From Leucosporidium creatinivorum (lineage: Eukaryota > Basidiomycota > Microbotryomycetes > Leucosporidiales > Leucosporidiaceae), in contig BCKL01000002.1 of the NCBI GenBank assembly GCA_001600635.1, forward strand, positions 1,305,425 through 1,369,424: a DNA stretch of 64,000 bases, read 5' to 3'. Shown here in pieces: positions 1-39,456 of the stretch; the first letter of the stretch is position 1, and each line of letters starts with the position of its first letter. The notes beneath the pieces are model-generated. The model worked only from the letters and a program-made list of their open reading frames with translations, made no database searches and was not told where the DNA came from. Both the position numbers and the translations under genes were made by a program.

Positions 1-3000
1 TGCTTCCCTTCTCGCAGAGGGCGAGTTCCAAGCCATCAGCCTCAGCGCTCCCCTCGACTCGCTCTTCTCGGACGCGTTCCAGAAGGTCCTTCTGACGAGG
101 AGGAGCAACTCGGGCTGCGGATGGGCGGGAGCGGAGCATCACTGCTTGCAGCCCGACTCGAGTAAGGATGGGTTTGACAAGAAGACGTGTCGCGAGGCCG
201 ACAAGGAGGAGAAGGCCATATCGGGGTCGTACTTGGTGAGTCCCGATAGCCTTAGGACCAGAGCTAGAGCTGACGACTACTCTACAGCTCCCCAAGGATC
301 CGATGAGCAAGTCGAGCAAGCCGACGAGCAACTACCCTCTCCTCGCCTTCTCCTACCTCCTTCGTCGCTTCGTCATGTGCCCTCGCTTCTGTCTCATCTG
401 CTTCAAGTGCGCTTGAACCTCTTTGCTCCCTCCTCGCTGTTCGCTGACCCTCGCCGTGCTCTTTCACAGGACTGTCGACCAAACGATCACGGCGCTCAAG
501 CCCTTCGTCTGCGACTCGCAACTCTGCCTCTTCCAGCTCATCTCGCTCGGCCTCGGTCCTTCCCTCGAACACGAGATCAAGACGAACGCTTCGGCCGTGG
601 ACCTCCTCGTCCAGCTCGCCTTCACCAGTGCCAAGGAGAATGCGCTCAAGGGCGAGCACCAACCTCAGGGATTGAGCTTGGAGGTCCCCGCCAACCCGCT
701 CTCGTACAAGAAGGGAGATGCGACGGTCGAGTTTGATGGATTGGATCAGTTTGCGAGGAACGCTGGAGTCGTCGCCCTCATCGCCGAGCTGCCTCCCGTC
801 GTAAGTTCTCCTTGCCCTCGACCGACCCTCGCTCGGAGAAAATGTGCTGACCTCACACTTTCACACCACAACAGCTCGACATGCGCGCCTGGCTCGCGGG
901 CGAAGACCTCTCGGACAACGACCGCCTCCTCAACCGCAACCGCAAGCTCCCCGACATGCGCGACGGATCCATCTCCAACTCTGCCTGGAAGCTCTTGCGC
1001 TGGATCGTCGCTTCCAACACGTCGTACCTTAAGCAGATCGAGGATGAGGACGAGCTGGTCCAAGGCGTCCCCAAGGCGTACAGGCAGTTCAGGCTCGTCG
1101 TGGGAAGTCCGGCGAAGGAGCATTTGCTCAAGGAGGCGATCAAGGCTGCGCAGGCGAAGAACGCGAACGCTAGGTCGTACCCTACGCTCTACGCTTGGCA
1201 TGGAAGCGCGGTCAAGAACTGGCATTCGATGTGAGTTGCTCAGCTCGCCTCGTCTCGTCGTCGCCGAGCTGATTCTCGCTTTCCACTCGACAGCCTCCGT
1301 GAGGGCCTTCACTTCAAGGAGACCATCAACGGACGTGCCTACGGCCATGGAGTCTACACCGCCAAAGACGGAGCCATCTCGATGGGCACCTACTCGCAGC
1401 CGTCGCAGGGCACCTGGAAGAACGCCGAGTTCGGAATCGGCAAGATGGCCGCGCTTGTCGAATTGGTCAACTTGCCCAACGAGTTCGTGTGAGTAGTTGA
1501 TCGTCTCCTGCTCGACTGTCTACCTCAACCGAGCTAACCTTGTTCGGTCGCCTTCGCAGCTCGAGCAACCCCTACCTCGTCGTCGACAAGCTCGACTGGA
1601 TCCAGTGCCGCTACCTCCTCATCCAGCGCACCACCACTTACAGCAGTACCTCGGAGACGACTGGCTCGGGTGAGGAAGCCGTCGGCGCCGCGAGGGGCCA
1701 CCTTACTCGTCCCATCGCTCTCGACCCGGCGCACCCTCTCGTCCTCAATAGCGCCAGGATTAGCATTCCCGATGTAACGCCCAAGTTGGAGGCGATGGAT
1801 AGGAAGTTGGCGGGAACGTTTGAGGAGCTGTGAGTCGATCTTGTTCGCCCGACCGAGGAGTGAAAACTGACCCTTCGCCTCGCCTCGTCTCGCAGCAACA
1901 TGTCCGACACCGAACTGATGAAGGACCCTCCTCCCAAGCGTCCCCTCGGTGCCAACTCCTCGTCCAACTTTCTCAGCTCGACTTCGCTCTCCCAGTCCCA
2001 ATCTCAAGGCGCCTCGTCCTCGGCGAAGGCCAAGCAGCCCAACCCCTTCGTCCCCGCCGACGCTACTCGCCTCAAGCTCATTCGTCTCCTTCCTCCGCCC
2101 TCTCAGCCCAATAAGGGAGCGAGCATGACCATTCAGAGGGAGATGAGGGTCATGATCAAGTCGCAGGACGAGAAGGGACCGACCGAGGCGGGCTTTTACT
2201 TTGATCCCGTGCTTTCGAGGGTTCCTTGAGAATGGGACGAGACCGATGGCTGACCCTTTCTCGTTTACAGGAGAGGAGCAATGACAATATCTTCACCTGG
2301 GTGGTCGAGCTCATCGGCTTCGACCCTGACTTGCCCATCGCCAAGTACGTCGCCCCGTTCCTCATTTTAACTGAGTTGAGGCTGACTCATCTTCTACCCC
2401 ATCTCGCAGAGATATGAAGGCCAAGGGCGTCACCAGTCTCTTGTTCGAGATCCGCTTTGGCGACAGGTGAGCGCTCAGCCTCTTCTGCCTGTCGCCGAGC
2501 TAATCATCTCCTCTTCACACAGCTACCCCCTCTCCCCTCCTTTCTTCCGCATGGTCCATCCGAGGTTCCTTCCTTTCATCCACGGCGGTGGAGGTGCGTT
2601 GAAAGCCGATGAGGAGGCTGAGGGCTCGGGAAGCTCACTTGTCTCGCTCGCGCAGGTCACGTCACGGGAGGAGGATCCATCTGCATGGACCTGCTCACTC
2701 CCAACGGATGGAATCCTGTCTATCAGATCGAAGCCGTGCTGCTTCAAATCCGCATGGCCATGTGAGTTTGGTCTTGCTCTCTCGGCGCTGCTCCTCAGCC
2801 CTCGCCGAAAGCTGACCGTTCCTCCTGTCCGCCCTCGCTCAATGTACTTCTCCATCTACTCTCACTCCACAGCTCCAACCTCGAACCCCGCCCCGCCCGC
2901 CTCGACCCTCAGCGCTGGAACGAGCCCTACACCATCAGCGAAGCCGTCGAGGGCTTCAAGCGCGCCGCCAGCACCCACGGCTGGTCGAGTGAGTCCCTCA

Positions 3001-3084
3001 TATCGCTGACCCTCGCGCTCCTGATGCTGACCTACTGCTCTAACAGTCCCCGAAGACCTCGACAAGCTTACTCGCGCCTACTGA
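1..3084 (+). CDS. PARP catalytic domain fused to UBE2Q-like ubiquitin-conjugating (E2) domain, 5' end outside window
   Basis: Spliced gene of about 12 visible exons, cut at the left edge. The first visible exon follows an acceptor near position 17. The N-terminal part has Cys pairs near 380-530 (MCPRFCLICFK, then CDSQLC). The middle (about 880-1800) is a PARP ADP-ribosyltransferase fold of the PARP6/8/16 type: YAWHGSAVKNWHS carries the NAD-binding His, and AYGHGVYTA the Tyr. The C-terminus is an E2 fold: SYPLSPPFFRMVHPRF, then GGGSICMDLLTPNGWNP with the catalytic Cys, as in UBE2Q. It ends LDKLTRAY with TGA at 3082-3084. PARP-UBC fusions are known from fungi, so ADP-ribosylation and ubiquitination are probably coupled on one chain; substrates are unknown. 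The last two exons lie inside the left inverted-repeat arm and are intact here. Introns use CTGAC or CTAAC branch sites. Confidence 0.85.
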
Positions 3085-4019
3085 TCGAGCTCGGACTCGG
3101 CTTGACCCTACTTGATCTCTCTTCCTCGCTTTCCCCTCTGCGCTCTGTTTTACCCCTCGCTCGCAAAATGTACCCTCTTCTCCCGTTGTGTACCTACACC
3201 CTCTCTAGCTCTAGCTCAGCTTGCCCTCGTTACCCTTCTCCCTCTCTCGCGTAGCTTTGCTGAAAGCCGCCGATTCTTTGACCTTAAGGACCAAGAGTGA
3301 GACTTGCGAAGTGGTACAGAGGAGAACACACGAATCAAGGAGACTATGAGCCGGTGTACCGAAGTCACTCGCCGCACCAAGCTCGAAGCTTGATCGCCGA
3401 GCTTGCCTCTCGAACCGCCGGACCCCTCCCGCTGGCTCGCTGATGCTCTACAGCTCGACCTCAGGATGATGTGAATCGATGTGATAATGATAAACGATGC
3501 TCCTACTACTAACTCCCTCCAAACCTCGCGTTCTGGCCGTTAATCTATGAAAAAGACCCGCTAAATCGACCCGGCTCGCCTCCCTGCGTCCACCCGGTCA
3601 GGTGGCAAACACCCCAAACAGCTTGAACTTGTAATTATCTACTCCTGGTTGTCCTGCGATCCGTAAGAGGTGTCCGGAGCGATTGGGATGGGTGCGAAGG
3701 AGCGAAAATGGCCGTACGCCGNAATATTGGACAGGACGTGTTTGGAGGTGATCATGAAGGTGATGGTTGGTGGAGAGTGATGAGAGCGATGTTGTGAGTG
3801 ATGGTGGTGAAGTTAGAAAGGTGTTGTAGGGTGACATGGTGCAAAACGAGCGGCGGTGAGGGAAGAAGGGAGGGTCAGCTCGGCTCTCCTTTTCTGACAC
3901 TGTACGCGACAAGACGCACCCTGCAGCTCGCATTCGACGTAGTGAGGTCCCTCGGTAACACCTTGGTCGATCTGAGTGACGCTGTAGCGGGGCAGCAGAA
4001 GGAGCGGAGGGTCAGCTCG
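2641..4019 (+). repeat. Left arm of a 1.38 kb inverted repeat
   Basis: This stretch reads as the reverse complement of 9803-11181. Positions pair as i with 13822 minus i almost throughout, so indels are few and balanced. Identity looks complete over several hundred bases around 3600-3930 and drops towards both edges. The arm contains the true last two exons of the PARP-UBC gene, the intergenic segment, and an antisense copy of the last two exons of the SGNH gene. An ambiguous base (n) lies at 3722, mirrored by an n at 10100. Outside the edges the similarity stops abruptly. Confidence 0.93.
3598..4019 (-). pseudogene. Detached 3' fragment of the SGNH gene
   Basis: On the minus strand this carries a copy of the last two exons of the SGNH gene that ends at 10224. 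The final exon is identical (VDNYKFKLFGVFAT then stop at 3598). The penultimate exon, starting at 3981, differs by at least two amino-acid changes (Lys to Glu and Val to Glu). There is no upstream coding sequence, promoter or start codon, because GT69 coding sequence follows from 4313 in the same orientation. It is a by-product of the inverted duplication and not a gene. It might still act as a 3' UTR or terminator for the flanking genes. Confidence 0.8.
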
Positions 4020-4312
4020 ACCCTCGAATCGCCGAGCTCCTGCGGTCTAGGAGTGCGGGCAGCAAGTCATGTCGCTCGTCTCAATGCGCATAAGGTCGTT
4101 TTCTGGGCTCAATGGAGCACGGGGTAGATGTTTGAGCGTCTGCGCAAGCTTCGGGCGAAGTAGTAGATCACTCGCCGAATCTTTTCGCAACGCCAAACGC
4201 TCTCAAGCTCGAGGTCGGGGACGAGATGATAAGAATAAGATACCTGATGATGCAAATGTGATACCCCGAGCTCCCTCTCTTCTAGCTAGCTCCCCCACTC
4301 CCCCTCCGCCGT

Positions 4313-7015
4313 CTAAGTTGGGCGCCATCCGTTGAGTAGCAAACGAGCCATCTGGAAGCCAGTGCGGCGCTGCTGCTTGGGTGCGATGCGACCTGTGAAA
4401 AGTGAATTGGTCAGCTGAAGTTCAGCGACGAGTTGAAAGAAGAAAGCTCACCTCCGGTCGTCCTCATCTCCTGGCAGACGAAGCTCTCTGGCGGCGTCCT
4501 CCATTCGTCGAGGACATACTTGCCGGAATGACTGAGTCCCGACTCCTTCTCCTCTCCCGTGCCGAACAGATCCAGCGCGAGCTGGGTGTGCGAGACCCCA
4601 GCGTAGGTCGTCACGCAGCGAGGGTTGACCAGGATCTTGGCCACAGCGTAGTCGAAGTCCTGATTGGGCAGCGAGCGAGGTCGGCGCTTCTCGTGACGGT
4701 GAAGCTTGACCTCCTCGACGACGGTGGGTGCAGAATCCTCCTCGACGGTCTCCGAGCCAAAGCCGAACCATCCGCGCTTCTTGAGCTTGGGAGCGGCGTC
4801 GTCCTTCTTCTGCTCGGCCTTCTTCACGTCGGCCTTCTTGACCTCCTTCTCCTTGACGGCCTTGTCCTTCTTGACGGCGGCGACGGGATCGGCAGCGTCG
4901 GGCATCTCGACCTTGGCCCACTGCTGAGCGGCGAGGGGCGCCTTGGCGGGCTCGAGGTCGGCAGGGGCGGCGAGGAAAGGGTCGTCCTTGGCGGGAAGGT
5001 TGGGCTGAGCGGCGGCGGCGGCACCAGCAGCTCCGGCGAGGGCAGCGGCGGCTCCTCCGGCAGCAGCAGCTCCTTCGGCGGCGACTCCTTCTCCTACGAG
5101 GGCAGCTGCTTCGGGAGCAGCAGCCTTAGGAGCGGCCTTGGGAGCGGGAGGTGCGGCGGGCTTGATCTTCTCGACAACGGCGGCGGGCTCCTCGGCGATG
5201 GGCTTGAGCTCGTCCTCGATCTTGACGGCGAGGTCGATAGGCCTTCCGACTCCTCCCTCGTCCTCATCGTACGCCTCGACCGGCCCTCCTTCGCTATCTC
5301 CCTCTCCCCCTTCCTCTTCGTACTCTTCATCATCCTCTTCCTCCTCCTCCTCGGATCCAGGCGGCAGGGGCGAGTTGCTCGCCTCGTTGTCCATCCCAGG
5401 ACCTCCACCCGGCGCCGCTCCCGTCTCATCGGCGAGGTAGTCGCCCGAGTTGGCGTATCCGATGCGAGGGTTGGAGGTAGGAGCGTACGAGGAGAGCATG
5501 GACTGGATGAGCTCCTCCATGAAGGGGTGGACCTTGCGCGCCTTGCCGAGTCGCTCGTCGTGGGCCAATCGCTTGGCCTCCTCCTTGACTCCCTCGCGGA
5601 AGGCGACCATCCACATATCGCGGCAGAAGTGGAGCTGTGAGGAATCCATACAGGGACCTTCGGACCAGCGAGGCGTCTTGCCGTCCGATGCGGCCGAGGT
5701 ATTGAAGACTCCAGCGACTGAGGATTGGTAGGTGACGCCGTGGTAGTAGGACTTGTGTGGGTCGACGATATGGGCGCCCGACTCGCAGCAGAAGACCTGG
5801 AAGGGGAGGTGAAGGGTGTAGCGAGCTCCTCCGTAGGCGTCGTGAGGGGGAGCTTCGTCGATGGGCGAGGTCGACTTGGAGCCACGGAAGAGGTTGCCGT
5901 CCATATCGCGAGTGCGCCAGCGGTCGTTGTAGATAAAGAAGCCGTTGTGCTCCTTCCAGTCCATCGAGCACACCATCGACGCCTCGTTGACCTCGCTCAC
6001 GCGGATCGTTTCGAGAATGTCGTTGGGGCAGGTGAAGCCCTTGAGCCAGATGACTCGGCTGAACTTGACCTTGCGGCGCTCCCACAGCTCGACGAGGGGT
6101 TCCAGGGCGAGGTTGCGAGTGTAGGCCTCCTCGAGAGGGTAGTAGGAGGCGGTGGGGTCGGCGGTCATGGGAGGGACTTGGCGGATTCGGAAGGAGATGC
6201 CGAGGAGGATCATTACTGCTTCGGCGATGTCGCAGATGAAGGGGGTCGAGTCGTTGGAGGCGTAGTCGACGAGGGAGACAAAGATGGAGTTGGGACCGAG
6301 GCGCTTGGAAAGCTGGACGATGACGGCGAGTTGGTCAATGAGGAAGTGGTCGGCGCCGTGCACGACGAGGGCAAAGTAGTAGAGGGCTCCTGGGCGAGCG
6401 AGGTCGCTCCAGTCATCCTCGCGCTGTTGCACGCCGAATGGCCTCGTCAAGGAGGAGCATGCAGCGGCAGCCCATCCGTTGAAGCCGAGGAGCTCGTCGA
6501 CGGCTCCGCGAACGACCTGCTCGTCGAGGTGGTAGGTGTCGGAGCTGAGGACGAAGGGCTTCTGAAAGCGATCCCAAAAGTCCTTGATGCCGTTTTGGAT
6601 GTCGCCGTCAAAGAGGTCGGGGTCCTCGTCGCGGTTGATGCGAGACTGGAGGAAGGCGTACTTGCGAGTGTCGAGGGCTTGGCCGGACAGAGGGGAGCCG
6701 AGGGTGATGCGCTCGAGGATGGCGGGATGAGCGATCTCGCCATATGGTGTAGGAGGCTGCAGCGGAGGGCGGCGGAAGAAGCGAAGGCGAGAACGCGTGT
6801 TAGCTCTGCTTTCTTGTAGCTCGGCAGCCAGCTGCAGCTCACCTTGGAGTCCCAGAAGACCCATTTACAGACAAAGATGAAGAGGATGCCACCTAGAACC
6901 CGCAGCCCGAAGCGATGTTGAGGAGTGAGGATGATCTGGCGTGTTGCGTGAAGCGAAGAGGTCAGTCCAGCGCTGTAGGGTTGCAGATCGCTTGTCAGCA
7001 GCTCACCGAAGCCAT
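4313..7015 (-). CDS. CAP59/CMT1-family (GT69) alpha-1,3-mannosyltransferase, type II membrane protein
   Basis: Four exons, about 830 residues. The first coding exon is only nine bases (Met-Ala-Ser, 7007-7015). The second encodes LRVLGGILFIFVCKWVFW, a signal-anchor consistent with a Golgi type II enzyme. The GT69 domain follows (residues about 60-370): FNGWAAAACSSLTRPF, VSLVDYASNDSTPFICDIAE, VIWLKGFTCPNDILETI, and DWKEHNGFFIYNDRWRTRDM with an acidic cluster. Cryptococcal CMT1 transfers mannose in alpha-1,3 linkage, and CAP59 is needed for capsule export. After the domain comes a low-complexity stretch of about 250 residues rich in Glu, Ala and Pro. The conserved tail then resumes (NPRCVTTYAGVSHTQLALDL). 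The last exon encodes GRIAPKQQRRTGFQM and ends at 4313. The gene is divergent from the SGNH gene and enclosed by the inverted repeat. Likely role: cell-wall or capsule polysaccharide synthesis. Acceptor and product are not deducible. Confidence 0.85.
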
Positions 7016-7788
7016 GATGATAGTGAGCTCAAGCCCTGCTCATGCGCAAGCGCCAAAGGACGACCTGGAGCTGCTCGACGAGGGAGAGAGCGCTCTCGTG
7101 GCGCGGTGAAGCTGAGCTGTAGCCTGCTAGACGAGCGCGCGGTGACTCTGCAGGGCTTGCAAGCTTGCTGCAGTCGACCAGTCGAGAAGAGAGGAGACGA
7201 AGAAGCGAGCGAAACGGACGAGGGAGAAAGGCGAGACGGCCAAGTACGAGCAGGAGACTAACTTTCGGCGGTAAATTCGAGTCTGTGCGCTCCGCAAAGG
7301 CCGTACGCTGAGCTCCTGAGAGTATATCTTGCAAATTTAAAGCTCCTGTACTTCATTTCAAGCCGCCGAGACCAGCGCCGAGAAGCTGGCCTTTGCGCCG
7401 AGGTGTACTGCAATAGAGCCGAGTTTGCAATGAAAGCTTCCTAGAGCTGACGAGCAGATTTACTAGCTGTACTAGACAGCAATTGGGTGCAGGAACTTTC
7501 AAGGTCTCGGCCCTGGCGCTTAGCTCTTCGTCGCTCAACCTCTTTCTCCTCCTCCGCCTCGTCGAATCGTCCTACAGCAGCAGTTCGGGCAGGGAGCAGC
7601 CACTCGACTCGCTTCTCCTTCTACCAGCTACGACAAGTCCACAGGGTTACAGGTTTAAGAGCTGCAGCACGGCCAGCCTCCTTGACACGCGTTCTCCGTC
7701 ACGCTTCTCTCGATTCGCCAGCTCGCCGAGCACGGAGCTCTGACGACCTACACGTACGGATCGAATCAATAACTATAGCACTACCAAC
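7016..7788. promoter_or_regulatory. Shared divergent 5' region of the GT69 and SGNH genes
   Basis: A 773 bp gap separates the two start codons. No ORF here looks real. It must hold both promoters and allows co-regulation. It lies close to the symmetry centre of the inverted repeat (about 6911), so an inversion between the arms would carry both promoters with their genes. Confidence 0.5.
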
Positions 7789-10224
7789 ATGCTGCACCGA
7801 CGTCGCCAGGACGTAGACGCCGACTCTGGACGGAGCTCGCCTGCCCCACCGCCTTCACGCTCCGCTCAACCTCCCTCGGCATTCGCTTCGCTGTTTCGAG
7901 GGACCAATCCCGACGGTTCAGCCAAGCAGTCAGCCTCGCGACGTCGGTTGCTCCTCATCGGCACCCCCGTCGTCCTCCTCTTCCTCTTCCTCCTCTCCTC
8001 CCCATCCAGCGACGCTTCCACCTCTTCTTCCTACGGCAGGGGGCGCTCCCTGCCCGGATTTAGCTCGCGTAGCGCTTTCGCCGCTTCTCGGAGGACAGAC
8101 GCTCTCGTACGAGCAGCGAGGAAGCAGCGCGCCCAGGCAGCCATCTCGCACGGAGGAACTGGAGGCTACGGTCCCGCCAACTTTAGTGAACCGCCTCCGT
8201 TCACCTTCTGCCCAACCTTCGGCAACAGCGATGAGCTCGGCAACGTCTACGGCCAGGAGGCCATCATGAAGACGAGGGCTCACGTTGGCTCGTCGGAGCG
8301 CATCAAGAAAGTCATCAAGCGCGCCATGGCAGGCTTGCCCATCACCATCGGAGTCCTCGGCGGTAGTGTTTCCTCCTGCCATGGACTGGACACCACCCAA
8401 GCCCACCCGCTCGGCAACCCAATCGGACCAAACTGCTACCCTCACCGCGTCTTTAGTTGGCTCAACGACGTGTTCCCGCATCCCGCCAACGAGCTTACTA
8501 ACGGTGCATGTGAGTAGTTGAATTGTCTTGCTCGAGAGCTATCGTATCGTTGCTTTACGCCCGTCCGAAATGCTCTCGGAAGCTCAAATCGCTGATCCAT
8601 TCCTCCCCCTCCCTACTTCGCCTCGCAGTGCGCCGAACTGGAACCTCCTACTTCGGCTTCTGCTCGGATATGCACTTGCCCGACCGTGTCGATCTCGTCA
8701 TCGTCGAATTCGACACCGAGGATCCTCAGTACGTCGCCTGCTCGGCGGAAGGTCTCTCGCTGCGGATGAGGCTAACCTCCCTCTTCCCTCCTACAGCGAC
8801 CCTACCTCCCTTTCAACTACCGACCTCCTCATTCGCTCGCTTCTCCTTCGTCCGGACCAACCCGCTGTCATCATGCTCGGCCACTTCAGTCCTCAGATCC
8901 AAGGAGAGCACGGATTCGCCGGTCCAGAGGTCTGGCATGCGGCTGTAGCTCAGTTCTACGATGTCGTTCACTTGAGGTGGGCTCGCAGTATCATACATCG
9001 CCTTTCACGGAGCTGACTCTCATCACACCAACAGCGTCAAGGGATTGCTCTACGAGGAGTACCTCATGAACCCTCAAAAGGTCCGTCAGTCGTACTTCCT
9101 CGACCCCATCCTCGCCAACTCGAAGGGACACGAGCTCCTCGCCGACACTCTGATCGCCTACCTCGAGTCGGAGATCTGTACCGTCTGGGATCAAGCCGCC
9201 CTCGAAACCGACATCGCCTTCCTCGGCGGCACCGTCCCCGTCTCCCCTCTCAACCTCGGCGAGGACTACCCCTCCCTCCTCTCCGGCAAGGGACTTCGCA
9301 AAGCCGCCGACGCAGGCCTCGATGCCGAGGATGCCGATGGAGCTTCTGGTCGCGCCGCTTCGTCGAGGAGCGCCTACCTCCGAATCCCTCCCTTCCGCAT
9401 TACCGACAAGCCTCACACGCTCTCCCACTTCCGCGAGATCAAGCCCAACTGCGCCTCGGCCAACGATCTGATCAACCCCCTTCCCGCCTCCGTCTTTGCC
9501 GGCTCGGGATGGAACCCCGTCGTCCCTCATCCCGACGACGAGGATGAGACGCACTACTGGTACACCGATGCGCCGGGAAGTCTGTTGAAGATTCCCATCA
9601 AGTGCGGTGCTGGTGATATCGCGGTCTACTACCTGAGGGGACCCGAGACGCAGGGATGGGGAACCGTTCTGTGCTGGGTCGACGACAACACCGAGGGTGC
9701 GGTCGAGTTGAAGGGTAGTTGGAACAGGGAGTACGGACAGCCTACGTGAGTTTTGCGTCTTCTTTCGACGTCGAGCTGCTCGAGGCGCCGAGCAACCCGG
9801 AGCGCCGAGCTGACCCGTCCCTCTGTCTGCCCCGCTACAGCGTCACTCAAATCGACCAAGGTGTTACCAAGGGACCTCACTACGTCGTATGCGAGCTGCA
9901 GGGTGCGTCTTGTCGCGTACAGTGTCAGAAAAGGAGAGCCGAGCTGACCCTCCCTTCTTCCCTCACCGCCGCTCGTTTTGCACCATGTCACCCTACAACA
10001 CCTTTCTAACTTCACCACCATCACTCACAACATCGCTCTCATCACTCTCCACCAACCATCACCTTCATGATCACCTCCAAACACGTCCTGTCCAATATTN
10101 CGGCGTACGGCCATTTTCGCTCCTTCGCACCCATCCCAATCGCTCCGGACACCTCTTACGGATCGCAGGACAACCAGGAGTAGATAATTACAAGTTCAAG
10201 CTGTTTGGGGTGTTTGCCACCTGA
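7789..10224 (+). CDS. Membrane-anchored SGNH/GDSL-type protein, probable cell-surface glycan-modifying or capsule-associated protein
   Basis: Six exons, about 610 residues. Residues about 45-65 form a hydrophobic anchor (LLLIGTPVVLLFLFLL) after a basic N-terminus, so it is probably a type II membrane protein. The SGNH block I nucleophile region is visible as ITIGVLGGSVSSCHG. Block III, normally ending in Asn-Asp, reads VDLVIVEFDTED. Block V (FLDPILANSKGHELLADTLI) has Leu where Asp-x-x-His is usual. Catalysis may therefore be altered or lost. A jelly-roll-like C-terminal region follows and the protein ends VDNYKFKLFGVFAT. The last intron (about 9904-10167) is much longer than its neighbours and contains the ambiguous base at 10100, so the final splice is the least certain part. 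The pairing with GT69 suggests surface polysaccharide work; no substrate can be named. Confidence 0.72.
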
Positions 10225-11181
10225 CCGGGTGGACGCAGGGAGGCGACCCGGGTCGATTTAGCGGGTCTTTTTCATAGATTAACGGCCAGAACGCGAGATT
10301 TGGAGGGAGTTAGTAGTAGGAGCATCGTTTATCATTATCACATCGATTCACATCATCCTGAGGTCGAGCTGTAGAGCATCATCGAGCCAGCGGGAGGGGT
10401 CCGGCGGTTCGAGAGGCAAGCTCGGCGATCAAGCTTCGAGCTTGGTGCGGCGAGTGACTTCGGTACACCGGCTCATAGTCTCCTTGATTCGTGTGTTCTC
10501 CTCTGTACCACTTCGCAAGTCTCACTCTTGGTCCTTAAGGTCAAAGAATCGGCGGCTTTCAGCAAAGCTACGCGAGAGAGGGAGAAGGGTAACGAGGGCA
10601 AGCTGAGCTAGAGCTAGAGAGGGTGTAGGTACACAACGGGAGAAGAGGGTACGTATTGCGAGCGAGGGGTAAAACAGAGCACAGAGGGGAAAGCGAGGAA
10701 GAGAGATCAAGTAGGGTCAAGCCGAGCCGAGGTCGAATCAGTAGGCGCGAGTAAGCTTGTCGAGGTCTTCGGGGACTGTTAGAGCAGTAGGTCTGCATCA
10801 GAAGCGATGGTCAGCGATATGAGGGACTCACTCGACCAGCCGTGGGTGCTGGCGGCGCGCTTGAAGCCCTCGACGGCTTCGCTGATGGTGTAGGGCTCGT
10901 TCCAGCGCTGAGGGTCGAGGCAGGCGGGGCAGGGTTCGAGGTTGGAGCTGTGGAGTGAGAGTAGATGGTGGAGTAGATTGAGCGAGGGCGGAGAGGAGGA
11001 ACGGTCAGCTTTCGGCGAGGGCTGAGGGGAGCAGCGCAGAGAGAGCAAGACCAAACTCACATGGCCATGCGGGTCTGAAGCAGCACGGCTTCGATCTGAT
11101 AGACAGGGTTCCACCCGTTGGGAGTAAGCAGGCCCATGCATATGGATCCTCCTCCCGTGACGTGACCTGCGCGAGCGAGAC
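9803..11181 (-). repeat. Right arm of the 1.38 kb inverted repeat
   Basis: Reverse complement of 2641-4019. It contains the true last two exons of the SGNH gene, the intergenic segment, and an antisense copy of the last two exons of the PARP-UBC gene. The edges show small indels (around 9810-9830) and scattered substitutions. The central part, including the ambiguous base at 10100, matches the left arm exactly by eye. Confidence 0.93.
10738..11181 (-). pseudogene. Detached 3' fragment of the PARP-UBC gene (E2 active-site region)
   Basis: The minus strand carries the E2 exon beginning at the acceptor near 11166, the next exon and the stop at 10738-10740. The reading frame and the active-site segment GGGSICMGLLTPNGWNP are still open. 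It differs from the intact copy by Asp to Gly after SICM, Ile to Thr in the LLQTRMA segment, and two Arg to Cys changes. The upstream E2 and PARP exons are missing, so no complete domain can be made from it. It sits antisense to nothing annotated and runs away from TAF13. It is read as a duplication remnant. Confidence 0.82.
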
Positions 11182-11405: not shown

Positions 11406-12073
11406 CTAAAGCACAGCCTTCTCCTTTCCCTTCTTGCTCTTCTTCTTGCTTCCTTCTGCTCCTCCACTCCCAGCCGCTGCCGCCGTCGCTCCACCTTTCT
11501 TGCTCGCCGCCTCGGCCGCCGCCTTCTCAGCCTTCTCCTTCTCCTTCGCCGCCAGCGCCGCTCCTATGCTCATGTCGGCCTTCTTCTTGGCCTCCTCGGC
11601 AGCAGCTTCCTCCTCGGCCACTTGAATCAAATCGTCCTTGCCGCGAGCGCGAGCAATCACCTCTGTCATGAAGAGCAGCTCGTCGACTCGGGCGAGCTTC
11701 TTGGGGTCTTTGCGCAGAGCGAACTTGAAGTCGTCGACCTTGATCTTGCCGCGAGTGGAGGAGACGCGCTGAGCTTGGGCGCACTGGGGTGCAGAGGGTC
11801 GATTAGCTGGGCGAGCGACTAAAGCTGGAGCGAGAGCGAGCTCACCACGTCCGAGATGTGCTCAATCACTAGCTCCTCCATTACTCCGATAGTGTCTGCT
11901 GCAGGTGACTCGTCGCCGAAGCCGTACATCATGGCTGACACTGTGGAGAGCGAGCGGTGAGCTGGGAGAGACGCGTGAGGGAGGTAGATTGACGTACAAT
12001 CCTTTGCAAACAAGCCCTTCTTCAAGATCCTGGCTTTGTGTACTTTGGCATCTTTGGCTACATCCTTGGACAT
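11406..12073 (-). CDS. TAF13: TFIID subunit TAF13 (histone-fold)
   Basis: Three exons. The start MSKDVAKDAKVHKARILKKG leads into GLFAKDLSAMMYGFGDES, the hallmark opening of TAF13. Exon 2 holds the first histone-fold helices (ADTIGVMEELVIEHISDV). Exon 3 holds CAQAQRVSSTRGKIKVDD then FKFALRKDPKKLARVDELL, the most conserved part of the family. After that comes a Lys/Ala/Glu-rich tail ending GKEKAVL. TAF13 pairs with TAF11 in TFIID and contacts TBP. The tail of about 70 residues beyond the histone fold is longer than in human TAF13. It is divergent from ELP2 with a gap of only 95 bp. Confidence 0.93.
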
Positions 12074-35053: not shown

Positions 35054-37205
35054 TCAGTCCTGCTCATCGACCTTGCTGTCCTCCATCTCTCTGAGCAGAT
35101 CGTCGGCGTTGCTGTCGTTCGGCGCCAAGTCAGCGCCGAATCGATGAAGGGCGGAGAGGGGAGAGGGAACAGTGGACTTTGGCTCACCCTGGTCCAGTGA
35201 TGACGATGAACATGAACTTCATCGCCTCCCTCAAGCACTCGGGCATGTCCTTCATCCCAGGGCTGTCCTCGACGATGAAGTCGCCTGCTCGTCCTCGGTC
35301 GTAGAGATCCCGACGGCGCTCGTGCTCTTGACTGTAGAGGCGCAGCGAGGGAGAAGGTATCAACTCGACTGCGAAGCCTGCAGAGAAGCGAGCCGAACTG
35401 ACCGAAAGTAGATCGCGTTGCGCCAAGTCGTCCTCTCCACCTCCCTTCCCGGCTCCGACAAGGCTTCCCTCCCCACCTCAATCAACTCCTCGACCTTCTC
35501 CTCGGCGATCTCGAACGCCGCCATCAGCTGCTTCAAAAGCTCGGCGCGGTCCACCTTCCCACAGTCTGCTTCCTCGGGCGTGGGATCCCTCTTGGCTGCT
35601 CCAAAGTCGCGCGTGAAGCTAGGCTTGTTCCGATTCCACATGAGCTCGGGACATTCGAGGAGGCAGCCGAGGAGGATACCGAGCGACTTGTCGTCCCGTT
35701 GGTGAATTGCCGAATCGCGGATGGCCATCATGCGCTCGCTTTGCTGCTGGGTCGTGAAGAGGTCGCCTCCAGCTTTGCCGACGACGTAGAGAGGAGCCTG
35801 ACACAAGCGACCGGATCCTTCTATGCGCCCGCCGAAGAACCAGAGCGCCTCCGCCTCTGCATTGAACGCCTCAAAGCTGCGAAGCTGGACTTGGAGAAGC
35901 TGGTTGAGAGGGGAAGAGAGCGAGGTAGACGAAAAGAGGGGGATGGCCGATGCATCTCTGAGCGCCTGACCGCAGGTATCCTTGTGCTTCACGCCGAGCT
36001 TGTGGTTTGCTCGCTGGCATTCCCTGTCATACGGTGAAGTCGAGGGTCAGTCTCGAGGTGCAAGGAATGAAGCTACGACGCACGAAGAGCACCAGGGTAC
36101 ATGTCGTGCGGCTTTGAGGCATTTGCTGCAGTAGAGGAACTTCTTGGACGCGAGCCAGTTGGCTATTGAAAGCGCCGAACTCGGCGTCAGCGGACGCCGA
36201 AGAGCGAACGAGCGAGCCTCCACGCATCTTACCCCTCATAGGACATCCGGTACAGGTCTCGAAGACCGGCTCGTGTTCTCCTAGCTGGGGAAGACGACCC
36301 TCGATGGCGATGAAAGCCGAGTTGTTGCTCGTCGTGTACTCGCGAGGGTTGAAGTTGATCATTCCGACTGGGACGAGCTCTTTACCCTCCTACACAAGCA
36401 GAAGCGTCAGCTTGATGTCGCTCGCAGACTGAGGCGAGCTTACAATGACGCTGAAGAGGTCCACAACGACTTCGAGGAGGTATGAATGACGGGTGAGGCG
36501 CTGCTCCTCCTGGAAAGCGCGGAGAGCTCTCGATGCGGGAAGGAGAGTCTCCTGGTCGAAGTCGAAGAGGAACTTGCGCTCGAAGGACTTGTTGCGCACA
36601 AACACCGACCACTGACCGTCCTGCGACCATCCTTCGACGACGAGCGAGTTGGCGAGCTTGAGCAGGCCGTCTCCGCTGCTGGCGAGCTGCTCGAGAGTGA
36701 TCTCGGGTGCGAGGAAGCGCATCATCTCTCCCCTCTCCGGTCCAGCCGCCCTCCCGCGATGCACATTCTCAAGCACCTGCAGAACGAGCTTCTCCCGCTC
36801 CCCCCTCGTCTTCCTCCTCCACGGCTCGGCGTACCTCTGCTCGAAGTCCTGAGCTGTCGTCTTCTCCATGAGCAGCAGACCTTCTCCTCTGACCGACTTT
36901 GCTCCCGCCTCCCGACAGGTGTAGGCCCATTCGTCGACGTAGGCAGTCAACTCGACGGCATCCTCCTTCTCATCGATGAAGGGCGGTGATTCGGGGTCGT
37001 AGAAGACGGCGAGACGGCGCTCCCATTCGGCGTTCCACTCCCGCACGTCGTTGTAGTCGAGTATCGTCAAGCGCTCGTCTTCGGGAGGAGGGGGAGCCGC
37101 CGAGGTGAAGCGACGAGTCGAGCTGGGGAGAGGGCGAGAATCGTTGCTAGCGCTCGAGGGAGATGGGCGAGGGCGGGGAGGCTTTTTCCGACGTGGTGCA
37201 GGCAT
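35054..37205 (-). CDS. MYND zinc-finger protein, upstream-duplicated paralogue A
   Basis: About six exons. It starts MPAPRRKKPPRPRPSPSSAS. The helical N-terminal half (EWNAEWERRLAVFYDPESPP, LTAYVDEWAYTCREAG, LAPEITLEQLASSGDGLLKL) has no known domain. A MYND-type zinc site follows, spread over introns: ETCTGC, then YCSKC, WCSSECQ and HKDTCG. The C-terminal part (RDSAIHQRDDKSLGILLGCL, LKQLMAAFEIAEEKVEELIE) is also shared with the neighbour. The last exon encodes NADDLLREMEDSKVDEQD. MYND fingers bind Pro-rich peptides, so a protein-interaction role is likely. The function is otherwise unknown. Confidence 0.75.
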
Positions 37206-37537: not shown

Positions 37538-39456
37538 CTAATCAAAGCTAGAGCTAGTCTCGGCGTCACTGCCCTCCTCCTCGCTGCTCTCCTCGCTGCT
37601 CTCCCACTCATCGTCCTTGCCCGCGTTCTCCAACCTCGCCACATCCGCCGGACTCATCTTTGCCAGCTCACCAGGTGTCAACAGCTTCCCTCCCACCCCA
37701 GCACCGGTACCGAACCACCACAAATAGGCGGGCAGCGTCTTGCCCTCCCTCTGCGCCCGGAACCACGCCGCCCTGTCGGCCTCGTCCTTCTCCCTGAGCT
37801 TGACGAACCGCTCGATAATCTCTCGCTCGACCTCGCGACCGTCCTGCGAAAGCGCCGCTTTGCCAATGTTGATGAGCTCGGCGACTCGGTCGTCGTCGAC
37901 CTCGAAGGCGTCCTTGAGCTGCTGCTTCAGCACATCAGGCTGGATCATGCTGGCGTAGGGGTCGTCCAGCTCGAAGGCTTCGGGTGTTGAATCTCCTCGA
38001 CCGCGGATGTTGGTCGGTCCTCGCGCAGCGCGATCCCAGACGGCTCCGGGGCATTCGAGGAGGAAGGCGAGAAGGATGCCGAGCGAGTCGTCGTCGCGTT
38101 CGTGGATGGCCGAGTCGCGAATCTCGATCATCCGTTTTTTGTCTCGTTGGGCGGTATGTACGGGCTCCTCGACTGCCAAAGGATTAAACCTGACGGGATC
38201 TGCGCCCTTCGCTGGGCGCACGAACCACCAAGCCGCGACCGATTCGGGGAAGGCGTCGACGAGGCGAATGATGGTGAGGAGATGGATGTTGAGGTTCGTG
38301 ATGGAGGGCTCGGCGGAGAAGGTGGGGACGAGAGTGGCGTGTTGGAGGGCTTGACCGCACGACTCCTTGTGCTTCCAGCCGCCCTTCCAATTGTTGCGCT
38401 GGCAGGCTGGAGAGCAGTACGGAACGATTCGACCGATTTTGAAGCATTTGCCGCAGTTGCTGAACGTCCGAGGCTTGATTTAAGCGGCTGCGAAAGTCGA
38501 ACGCCGAGATTAGCTTTCGCGCTCGAAGCTAAGACAGCGAAAGCATACCAGTCTTGTAGCATCCAGCGCAGCACTTGACGGTGGGGTCGAACGAGTTGAC
38601 CTTGGGTAGAAAGCCCTCACGTGCGGCGACTCCTCCTCGCTCCCGATCCGCTGGCTTCGTTTTCGGCGCCTTGAATCGGTCGCGTCGCCTGAAACCGGCG
38701 TCGGGATCACACTGTCGAGGCAGTAGGGTAAGCCTACAATCTCCGTCTAGTTTCGTACGGCAAGGGACGTACAAGGAAGTGTAGCACGCCTCCACAAACC
38801 TCGAGAAGCTTGGAGTGCCGTTGCAGTCTCATCTCCTCCTGATACGCTCGAAGGGCCTTGGAGGGCGGTAGCGCGGTCTCATCGTCGAGCTTGAAGCCGT
38901 GCTTCTTCTCCCAGGCGGCGTTGCGGACAAAGATCTGCCGCTCTGCGTCGATGATCCTTCCCTCGGTCATGCAAGCGTCTACCAGCTTGAGAAAGCCGGA
39001 ACCATCGCCGCCGACCATGCGCTCGAGGGTGAACTCGGGACAGTGCATTCGTGCTATGACTGAAATCCCCTGCTGCGTCTCTGCGATCTCCGCCGAGCGA
39101 GCGAGTACGTCTAAGAAGCGATCCTCCCGCTCCTTCACCGAGAAAGCCTTCCACGGTCGAAGGTACGTCGCTTGCCAGTCGCTGGCGGTGACCCTCTCGG
39201 CGAGACGGTCGGCTTGGTCCTGGACCATCCTCTTTCCCTCCTCCCTATCCGCGAATGACGCCTCGTCGAGATAGGAAGCGAGCTCAACGGAGCTAATCTT
39301 CTCGGGCGGTTGGGCGAAGTAAAGGTCGACTTGCTTCTCCGTCAAGAGCGCCCAGTTCCGGAGGTCGCCTTGCTCTCGCCAAGGGCCCGGCATGTGGTAG
39401 TCATCGGGCGCCGGCTGGTGAGGACGAGGAGGGGCGTTGCGGCGACGAGGAGGCAT
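37538..39456 (-). CDS. MYND zinc-finger protein, paralogue B
   Basis: About four exons. It has the same architecture as the neighbour: start MPPRRRNAPPRPHQPAPDD, then helical N-terminal half (SSVELASYLDEASFADREEG, HCPEFTLERMVGGDGSGFLK, LPPSKALRAYQEEMRLQRHS). The MYND site is canonical: KCCAGC, CGKC, YCSPACQRNNW and WKHKESCG. The C-terminal half matches the neighbour (EIRDSAIHERDDDSLGILLA, LKQQLKDAFEVDDDRVAELI). It ends in an acidic Ser/Glu tail absent from paralogue A. The shared blocks LRAFQEEQRLTRHS and LRAYQEEMRLQRHS show clear tandem duplication but substantial age. Confidence 0.78.

What the first reader, a model, noticed from the sequence alone, without database searches (positions are those of the whole stretch)
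2641..11181. Polysaccharide gene pair enclosed by a 1.38 kb inverted repeat that carries both neighbours' 3' ends
Arms 2641-4019 and 9803-11181 are mirror images about position 6911. Each holds the last exons of PARP-UBC and of the SGNH gene, tail to tail. A simple history fits: PARP-UBC once converged on the SGNH gene, and the SGNH-GT69 block inverted with a staggered break that duplicated the junction. Because each arm carries both tails, recombination between arms would flip the 5.8 kb block and still leave PARP-UBC, SGNH and GT69 complete. The block could thus be a flip-tolerant cassette that varies in orientation between strains. The sequence shows the arms; the history and flipping are inference.
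Basis: partly seen in the sequence, partly recalled or inferred. Interest (0 to 1): 0.78.

Follow-up and report, generated by a model that had tools for sequence, protein, structure and literature searches.

The report
Inverted duplication flanking two fungal genes
A small two-gene block in a fungal chromosome is bracketed by mirror-image copies of the place where it probably once met its neighbour, most likely a scar of an old inversion; the copies seem to exchange sequence, so the block might flip again, but nothing here shows that it does.

Summary
Arms 2641-4019 and 9803-11181 are inverted copies, 97% identical; 980 bp of the arm match at two places in the 27.7 Mb assembly. Each arm carries the last three PARP-UBC exons and the last two SGNH exons, tail to tail. 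The shared junction implies that PARP-UBC and SGNH once converged and that an inversion of the SGNH-GT69 block duplicated the junction, the signature described for staggered-break inversions in Drosophila (passages). No outgroup was available; the history is inferred.

New here: the arms are a mosaic. Substitutions are 4.0% and 4.8% at the edges but 0.4% over 764 bp in the middle, as expected if the arms exchange sequence, though assembly merging is not excluded. The spare gene tails carry changed residues. Two known flipping loci in fungi have identical arms, so habitual flipping is unlikely; occasional flipping remains possible. Two more inverted pairs lie in the 264 kb compared; one encloses another SGNH-like gene. 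Orientation polymorphism was not testable. A new member of a known kind.

The parts
2641..4019 (+). Left arm (A): last exons of PARP-UBC, intergenic stretch, spare copy of the SGNH tail (reversed)
   Evidence: 97% identical to the reverse complement of 9803-11181; two places in the assembly
9803..11181 (-). Right arm (B): last exons of SGNH, intergenic stretch, spare copy of the PARP-UBC tail (reversed)
3170..3933 (.). Near-identical middle of arm A (3 substitutions in 764 bp, plus one N)
   Evidence: permutation of 27 substitutions reached the observed contrast in 1 of 2000
9889..10652 (.). Near-identical middle of arm B (mirror of 3170-3933)
1..3084 (+). PARP-UBC fusion gene (5' end outside the window), 13 exon pieces in my model
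   Evidence: splice model; Pfam PF00644 and PF00179
3598..3981 (-). Spare SGNH tail in arm A (exon copies 3981-3920 and 3653-3598); K to E and V to E against the copy in arm B
4313..7015 (-). GT69 gene (CAP59_mtransfer); start and last exon by inspection
   Evidence: Pfam PF11735 E 3.9e-30; end codons
7016..7788 (.). 773-bp intergenic stretch between the divergent GT69 and SGNH genes (probable shared promoter, inferred)
   Evidence: gene models
7789..10224 (+). SGNH-like gene, six exons in my model
   Evidence: splice model; paralogue with Lipase_GDSL_2
10738..11166 (-). Spare PARP-UBC tail in arm B (exon copies 11166-11061, 10947-10832, 10775-10738); 4 nonsynonymous and 5 synonymous codon changes
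11406..11861 (-). TAF13-like gene (main open frame), right-hand neighbour
   Evidence: Pfam PF02269 E 1.1e-10
3722..3722 (.). Single N, mirrored by N at 10100
10100..10100 (.). Single N, mirror of 3722

Best explanation
The arms are the scar of an inversion. The ancestral order was PARP-UBC, then SGNH reversed, then GT69, then TAF13 reversed, with PARP-UBC and SGNH converging (inferred from the shared junction). One break was staggered over about 1.38 kb, from an intron of PARP-UBC to an intron of SGNH; the other lay between GT69 and TAF13. When the SGNH-GT69 block was rejoined the other way round, the staggered stretch was filled in at both ends. Every gene therefore kept its own 3' end, and a spare pair of gene tails was left beside GT69 and beside TAF13. 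Afterwards the spare tails decayed at the arm edges, while the arm middles were kept alike by recombination between the arms (gene conversion, with or without crossover). A crossover in the middle would flip the block and restore the ancestral PARP-UBC/SGNH junction without changing a protein. Such flips are possible and probably rare. Shown here: the arms, the gene tails in both, the single pair in the assembly, the mosaic divergence, the changed residues of the spare tails. Inferred: the inversion, the staggered break, the gene conversion, the ability to flip.
For: Both arms hold one continuous junction, PARP-UBC tail / about 513 bp / SGNH tail reversed, while the PARP-UBC gene body joins arm A and the SGNH gene body joins arm B. 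This needs a past adjacency of the two genes, or two events that met at one junction. The spare PARP-UBC copy shows decay: at the D and I that change to G and T in arm B, the solved relatives 2qgx (UBE2Q1) and 1zuo have E and I, and 2aak has D and I. Not a dispersed element: two places for the arm, one full copy of the block. Mosaic: 21 substitutions in 529 bp, 3 in 764 bp, 3 in 62 bp; 1 of 2000 permutations is as extreme. Non-coding sequence agrees: two PARP-UBC introns 8 of 169 against SGNH intron 5 with 0 of 266 (one of these an N), Fisher p 0.0005. Inverted duplication at both breakpoints that stems from one breakpoint of the standard order is held to fit only the staggered-break mechanism in Drosophila subobscura (PMC5080602, passages).
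Against: No related genome, reads or second strain could be searched, so the ancestral order is not tested. The interval 3170-3933 was chosen by a scan of the same data; the permutation repeats that scan, the Fisher tests do not. Indels and the ill-aligned ends (outside 2641-3995) were left out of the counts. The mirrored N shows that at least one base in the middle was not resolved, so part of the identity could be assembly merging. The nearby pair Y seems, by eye, to be an inverted copy of a piece from inside a permease-like gene, which a simple inversion would not give, so this genome may also make inverted copies in another way.
Confidence: 0.65

Rival explanations
1. Inverted templated insertion rather than inversion: a copy of the PARP-UBC tail was first pasted behind SGNH (template switching during repair), and later gene conversion or repair synthesis carried the SGNH tail back behind PARP-UBC. 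No block was inverted.
For: Pair Y, about 193 kb upstream, may be such a case: 358 bp, 98% identical, that lies, by eye and without a gene model, inside a permease-like gene and again in inverted orientation behind another gene. The PARP edge and the middle of the arms are separated by a step in divergence at 3169/3170.
Against: It needs two events that end at one common junction; the SGNH edge (3934-3995) is again diverged (3 of 62), which a single young extension does not predict.
Confidence: 0.15
2. Assembly effect: the arms are real but their middles were merged by the assembler, so the low divergence there, or even the orientation of the block, is not biological.
For: Single N at mirrored positions 3722/10100, and a mirrored N in pair X as well. 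In Candida albicans the reference may be misoriented for a 32-kb block between 1.7-kb inverted repeats (PMC6591007, passages).
Against: Three differences inside the middle were kept apart (3440, 3524, 3575). Nine of 17 single Ns lie in a stretch with no second copy in the assembly, so Ns do not simply mark merged repeats. Differences run inward for about 530 bp from the PARP edge but only about 85 bp from the SGNH edge, an asymmetry that merging alone does not predict.
Confidence: 0.1
3. A flipping cassette in regular use: the block changes orientation often, as at mating-type loci, and the change alters expression of the SGNH and GT69 genes.
For: Arm length (1.38 kb) and spacing (5.8 kb) lie in the range tested and found to recombine in engineered yeast repeats, as cited in PMC6591007 (passages); by the gene models all genes stay complete in both orientations; the middles are near-identical.
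Against: Arms in two regular flippers are identical: 250 bp in all 36 isolates of Sclerotinia sclerotiorum, 2049 bp in Hansenula polymorpha. Here the edges differ by 4-5%. The intergenic stretch from which both genes start lies inside the block and would move with it, so a flip would change only 3' and wider surroundings.
Confidence: 0.06
4. The two arms are two haplotypes of one junction, joined into one contig from a heterozygous strain.
For: Divergence of about 3% could be allelic (general knowledge); single Ns could be heterozygous sites.
Against: No third copy of the arm and no second full copy of the block was found in the assembly. STE3 receptor matches lie at one place only, as expected of a haploid. 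The joins of arm to GT69 and of arm to TAF13 would not exist in either simple haplotype.
Confidence: 0.04

Closest known systems
Staggered-break inversions of Drosophila subobscura (PMC5080602, passages seen)
   Different: Those were shown by comparing inverted and standard chromosomes; here only one arrangement is known. Block here is 5.8 kb with two genes
Sclerotinia sclerotiorum MAT inversion (PMC3574095, passages seen, parts of the abstract among them)
   Same: A small fungal block (3.6 kb) between inverted repeats that are a partial gene
   Different: Repeats are 250 bp and identical in 36 isolates, both orientations segregate 1:1, and one gene is truncated by the flip; here edges have diverged and no gene would be broken by a flip in the middle
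Hansenula polymorpha MAT1/MAT2 inversion (PMC4238957, passages seen)
   Same: Long inverted arms (2049 bp); the C-terminal half of a neighbour gene (SLA2) stands at the second locus
   Different: Arms identical, loci about 18 kb apart, flip switches mating type
Inversions at long inverted repeats in Candida albicans (PMC6591007, passages seen)
   Same: Repeats of about 1.7 kb; most putative inversions lie at repeats with ORFs, and the unique DNA between is inverted
   Different: There inversions at two loci were shown by PCR; here nothing was tested on DNA
Human inversions between inverted repeats (PMC3961182, passages seen)
   Same: Blocks between inverted repeats that flip repeatedly by recombination of the repeats
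   Different: Human; recurrence was shown by shared SNPs and by both orientations in other primates

Membership tests
Staggered-break inversion | Same stretch in inverted orientation at both ends of the block | tested here: met
Staggered-break inversion | Duplicated stretch is one junction, with gene tails of both presumed original neighbours in each copy | tested here: met
   PARP-UBC and SGNH tails in both arms; that the junction is ancestral is inferred
Staggered-break inversion | Non-inverted arrangement with a single copy exists in relatives | not testable with these tools
   states that the genome has no relatives here; the genome and contig collections offered are prokaryotic, viral or capped at no scan
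Staggered-break inversion | No dispersed repeat at the breakpoints (against inversion by pre-existing repeats) | tested here: met
   two places in the assembly for 980 bp of the arm (counts are lower bounds)
Recombination-driven flip locus | Both orientations occur | not testable with these tools
   one assembly, no reads
Recombination-driven flip locus | Arms kept identical over their length, as in the two fungal loci compared | tested here: not met
   middle 0.4%, edges 4.0% and 4.8%
Recombination-driven flip locus | Arms long and close enough to recombine | tested here: met
   1.38 kb arms, 5.8 kb apart; tested range from PMC6591007
Site-specific invertible element | Short recombination sites and a dedicated recombinase | not tested
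   arms are gene tails, not short sites; a recombinase gene was not searched for
Transposon with terminal inverted repeats | Further copies in the genome | tested here: not met
   no third copy of the arm and no second full copy of the block found

The most novel reading that the evidence does not exclude
The block is a low-frequency flip cassette of a basidiomycete: arm middles kept alike by ongoing crossovers, both orientations present in the species, and each arm working as a spare two-way 3' end (terminator) so that all four genes stay insulated in either orientation. SGNH-like genes may be drawn to such settings: both of those found in the 264 kb lie between inverted arms.
Probability: 0.12. 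Interest if true: 0.6.

Novelty: new member of a known kind. Interest (0 to 1): 0.33.

Why it matters
It is a small, readable example of how an inversion could occur in a gene-dense fungal genome without breaking a gene, and how it would leave behind repeats that allow further inversion. Diverged edges and a near-identical middle can be read as a record of exchange between the arms. If local inverted pairs are as common in the rest of this genome as in the 264 kb compared, assemblies of such fungi may hold blocks whose orientation is uncertain or variable.

Tried and rejected
Transposon or dispersed repeat: rejected, two copies found. Mating-type link: the STE3 matches lie on another contig, C25, so the block is not beside the pheromone receptor gene; HD genes were not searched. 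Known RNA families: none at gathering scores in the window; ARAGORN found no tRNA (bacterial settings). Breakpoint motif: both arm ends lie in introns near a GCTGAC-like stretch; 5% of window positions lie within 15 nt of GCTGAC, and two ends are too few for a claim. Single Ns as marks of merged repeats: not upheld, as nine of 17 lie in a stretch with one place in the assembly. A link of SGNH-like genes with inverted pairs: both SGNH-like places in the 264 kb lie between inverted arms, which with their blocks cover about 34 of 264 kb; four weaker places on other contigs could not be looked at. The 15.5-17 kb between the arms of pair X were not annotated; searches place no SGNH or GT69 match there. 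Species: not identified. One paper search listed four papers, none followed; a basidiomycete of the Microbotryomycetes is my guess from recalled features. Paper searches that returned nothing. Fungal inversion breakpoints with inverted duplications: one search listed 8 papers, none holding the term 'inverted duplications'; I saw the listing only. One search listed 8 papers, of which I looked into one (PMC6591007).
Full report
OBSERVATION. The inverted repeat is real and at the stated place. A gapped alignment of the two arms runs from 2625-4025 against 11197-9800 with 1358 of 1405 columns identical; an ungapped search gives the same arms in three pieces of 98, 94 and 92%. It is by far the strongest self-match in the window. 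The window is C2:1305425-1369424 of an unnamed 27.7 Mb, 63-contig assembly, and 980 bp of the arm match at these two places (counts are lower bounds). The 5.8-kb block has one full copy; one 62-bp piece at 82% lies on another contig.

GENES. The left neighbour is a PARP-UBC fusion (PF00644, PF00179), with the last exon ending at 3084. Inside the block GT69 (PF11735, CAP59_mtransfer) runs leftward, 7015-4313, and an SGNH-like gene runs rightward, 7789-10224, in six exons. They diverge from a 773-bp intergenic stretch. To the right lies a TAF13-like gene (PF02269). Splice models were made by eye. The SGNH-like protein has no Pfam match up to E 5. Its name rests on recalled motifs and on a paralogue at C2:1112049-1112564, 32% identical over 170 columns, which matches Lipase_GDSL_2 at 31.8 bits, slightly under the cut-off of 32.9.

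ANATOMY OF THE ARMS. Each arm holds the last three exons of PARP-UBC, about 513 bp between the stop codons, and the last two exons of SGNH in reverse. Both tails have open frames and stop codons in both arms. The PARP-UBC gene body joins arm A, the SGNH gene body joins arm B. The spare PARP-UBC tail in arm B differs at nine codons, four of them nonsynonymous (D to G, I to T, R to C twice). The solved relatives 2qgx (UBE2Q1) and 1zuo carry E and I at the first two places, so the arm B residues look like the changed ones; the two R sites were not informative. The spare SGNH tail in arm A has three base differences in its first exon and none in its last, giving K to E and V to E. The arm ends lie in an intron of PARP-UBC (2594-2655) and an intron of SGNH (9746-9840).

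MOSAIC DIVERGENCE. The alignment has 33 substitutions and 9 indel events. I counted the 27 substitutions between 2641 and 3995 and left out six at the ill-aligned ends and all indels. Of the 27, 21 lie in the outer 529 bp, 3 in the next 764 bp and 3 in the inner 62 bp. A scan for the interval of lowest rate picked 3170-3933; the same scan on permuted positions was as extreme in 1 of 2000. Non-coding sequence shows the contrast too: 8 of 169 sites in two PARP-UBC introns against 0 of 266 in the last SGNH intron, which holds the N (Fisher p 0.0005). The simplest reading is recombination between the arms that has renewed the middle. Central crossovers would leave this pattern, because the edges stay linked to their own flanks; a non-crossover conversion looks the same. 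An assembly effect cannot be excluded: there is a single N at mirrored places 3722 and 10100, and another mirrored N in pair X. Against pure merging, three differences inside the middle were kept apart, and nine of the 17 single Ns in 264 kb lie in a stretch that has one place in the assembly.

SURROUNDINGS. I fetched 200 kb upstream and aligned it with the window to itself, 264 kb or about 1% of the assembly (blastn, words of 16, low-complexity filter on). It holds two more inverted pairs over 300 bp. Pair X, C2:1278338-1280976 and 1296505-1299111, is 95% and 90-92% identical in its two main pieces, 15.5-17 kb apart. Its arms carry what reads like an outer gene's tail, a piece of an eL42-like ribosomal protein gene and an F-box-like gene; these names come from reading the sequence. 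The frames that I gave to Pfam had no match over cut-off, and the eL42-like exons were not among them. No SGNH or GT69 match lies inside pair X. It too is a mosaic: 5 of 28 bins of 100 bp have no difference, although the mean is about 8.6. Pair Y, C2:1110823-1111180 and 1115121-1115474 (98%), encloses the SGNH-like paralogue. One of its arms lies, by eye and without a gene model, inside a permease-like gene, so it looks more like a templated insertion than an inversion. So both SGNH-like places in this stretch lie between inverted arms, while pair X shows that such pairs occur without SGNH or GT69.

MECHANISM. One continuous junction in both arms points to a past adjacency of PARP-UBC and SGNH. 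Inversion of the SGNH-GT69 block with one staggered break explains both arms in one step. [quoted passage not shown] The main rival, an inverted insertion followed by conversion, needs two steps that end at the same junction. A flip by recombination is possible in principle: inverted repeats of about 1.7 kb are linked to inversion of the DNA between them in Candida albicans (PMC6591007, passages). It leaves the proteins unchanged only if the crossover falls in the middle. The identical arms of Sclerotinia sclerotiorum and Hansenula polymorpha show what regular flipping looks like, and these arms do not look like that.

VERDICT. Observation confirmed; history likely but untested by outgroup; flipping possible, probably rare, not shown. 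STE3 matches lie at one place, as expected of a haploid, so a hidden second haplotype is unlikely. A new member of a known kind: inversion scar with duplicated breakpoint.

Noticed in passing
L020:2914-5552 and L022:1081-3687 (C2:1278338-1280976 / 1296505-1299111): A second, larger inverted pair (about 2.6 kb arms, 15.5-17 kb apart) with mosaic identity, a mirrored N and a third 285-bp piece at C2:1295600.
   Followed up: partly
L003:5399-5756 and L003:9697 to L004:53 (C2:1110823-1111180 / 1115121-1115477): Inverted pair of about 358 bp around a second SGNH-like gene; one arm seems, by eye, to lie inside a permease-like gene, so it may be a templated insertion.
   Followed up: partly
window 7789-10224 and L003:6394-7479: Both SGNH-like places found in the 264 kb lie between inverted arms, although the three pairs with their blocks cover about 34 of 264 kb. 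Two cases are too few to judge.
   Followed up: partly
window 7789-10224: The SGNH-like protein has D-P-I-L where its paralogue has D-L-H-H before the shared N..GHELL stretch, so the usual catalytic His of SGNH enzymes (recalled) seems absent; it may be a non-catalytic relative.
   Followed up: no
L004:1096-3350 (C2:1116520-1118774): Nine single Ns in 2.3 kb of a permease-like stretch (named by eye) that has one place in the assembly; cause unknown, perhaps an unassembled second copy.
   Followed up: partly
L019, C2:1266547-1266916 and 1270086-1270455: A direct repeat of 370 bp at 98.9% identity, copies 3.2 kb apart.
   Followed up: no
window 35631-35719 and 38031-38119: A direct 90-bp repeat at 81% identity.
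   Followed up: no
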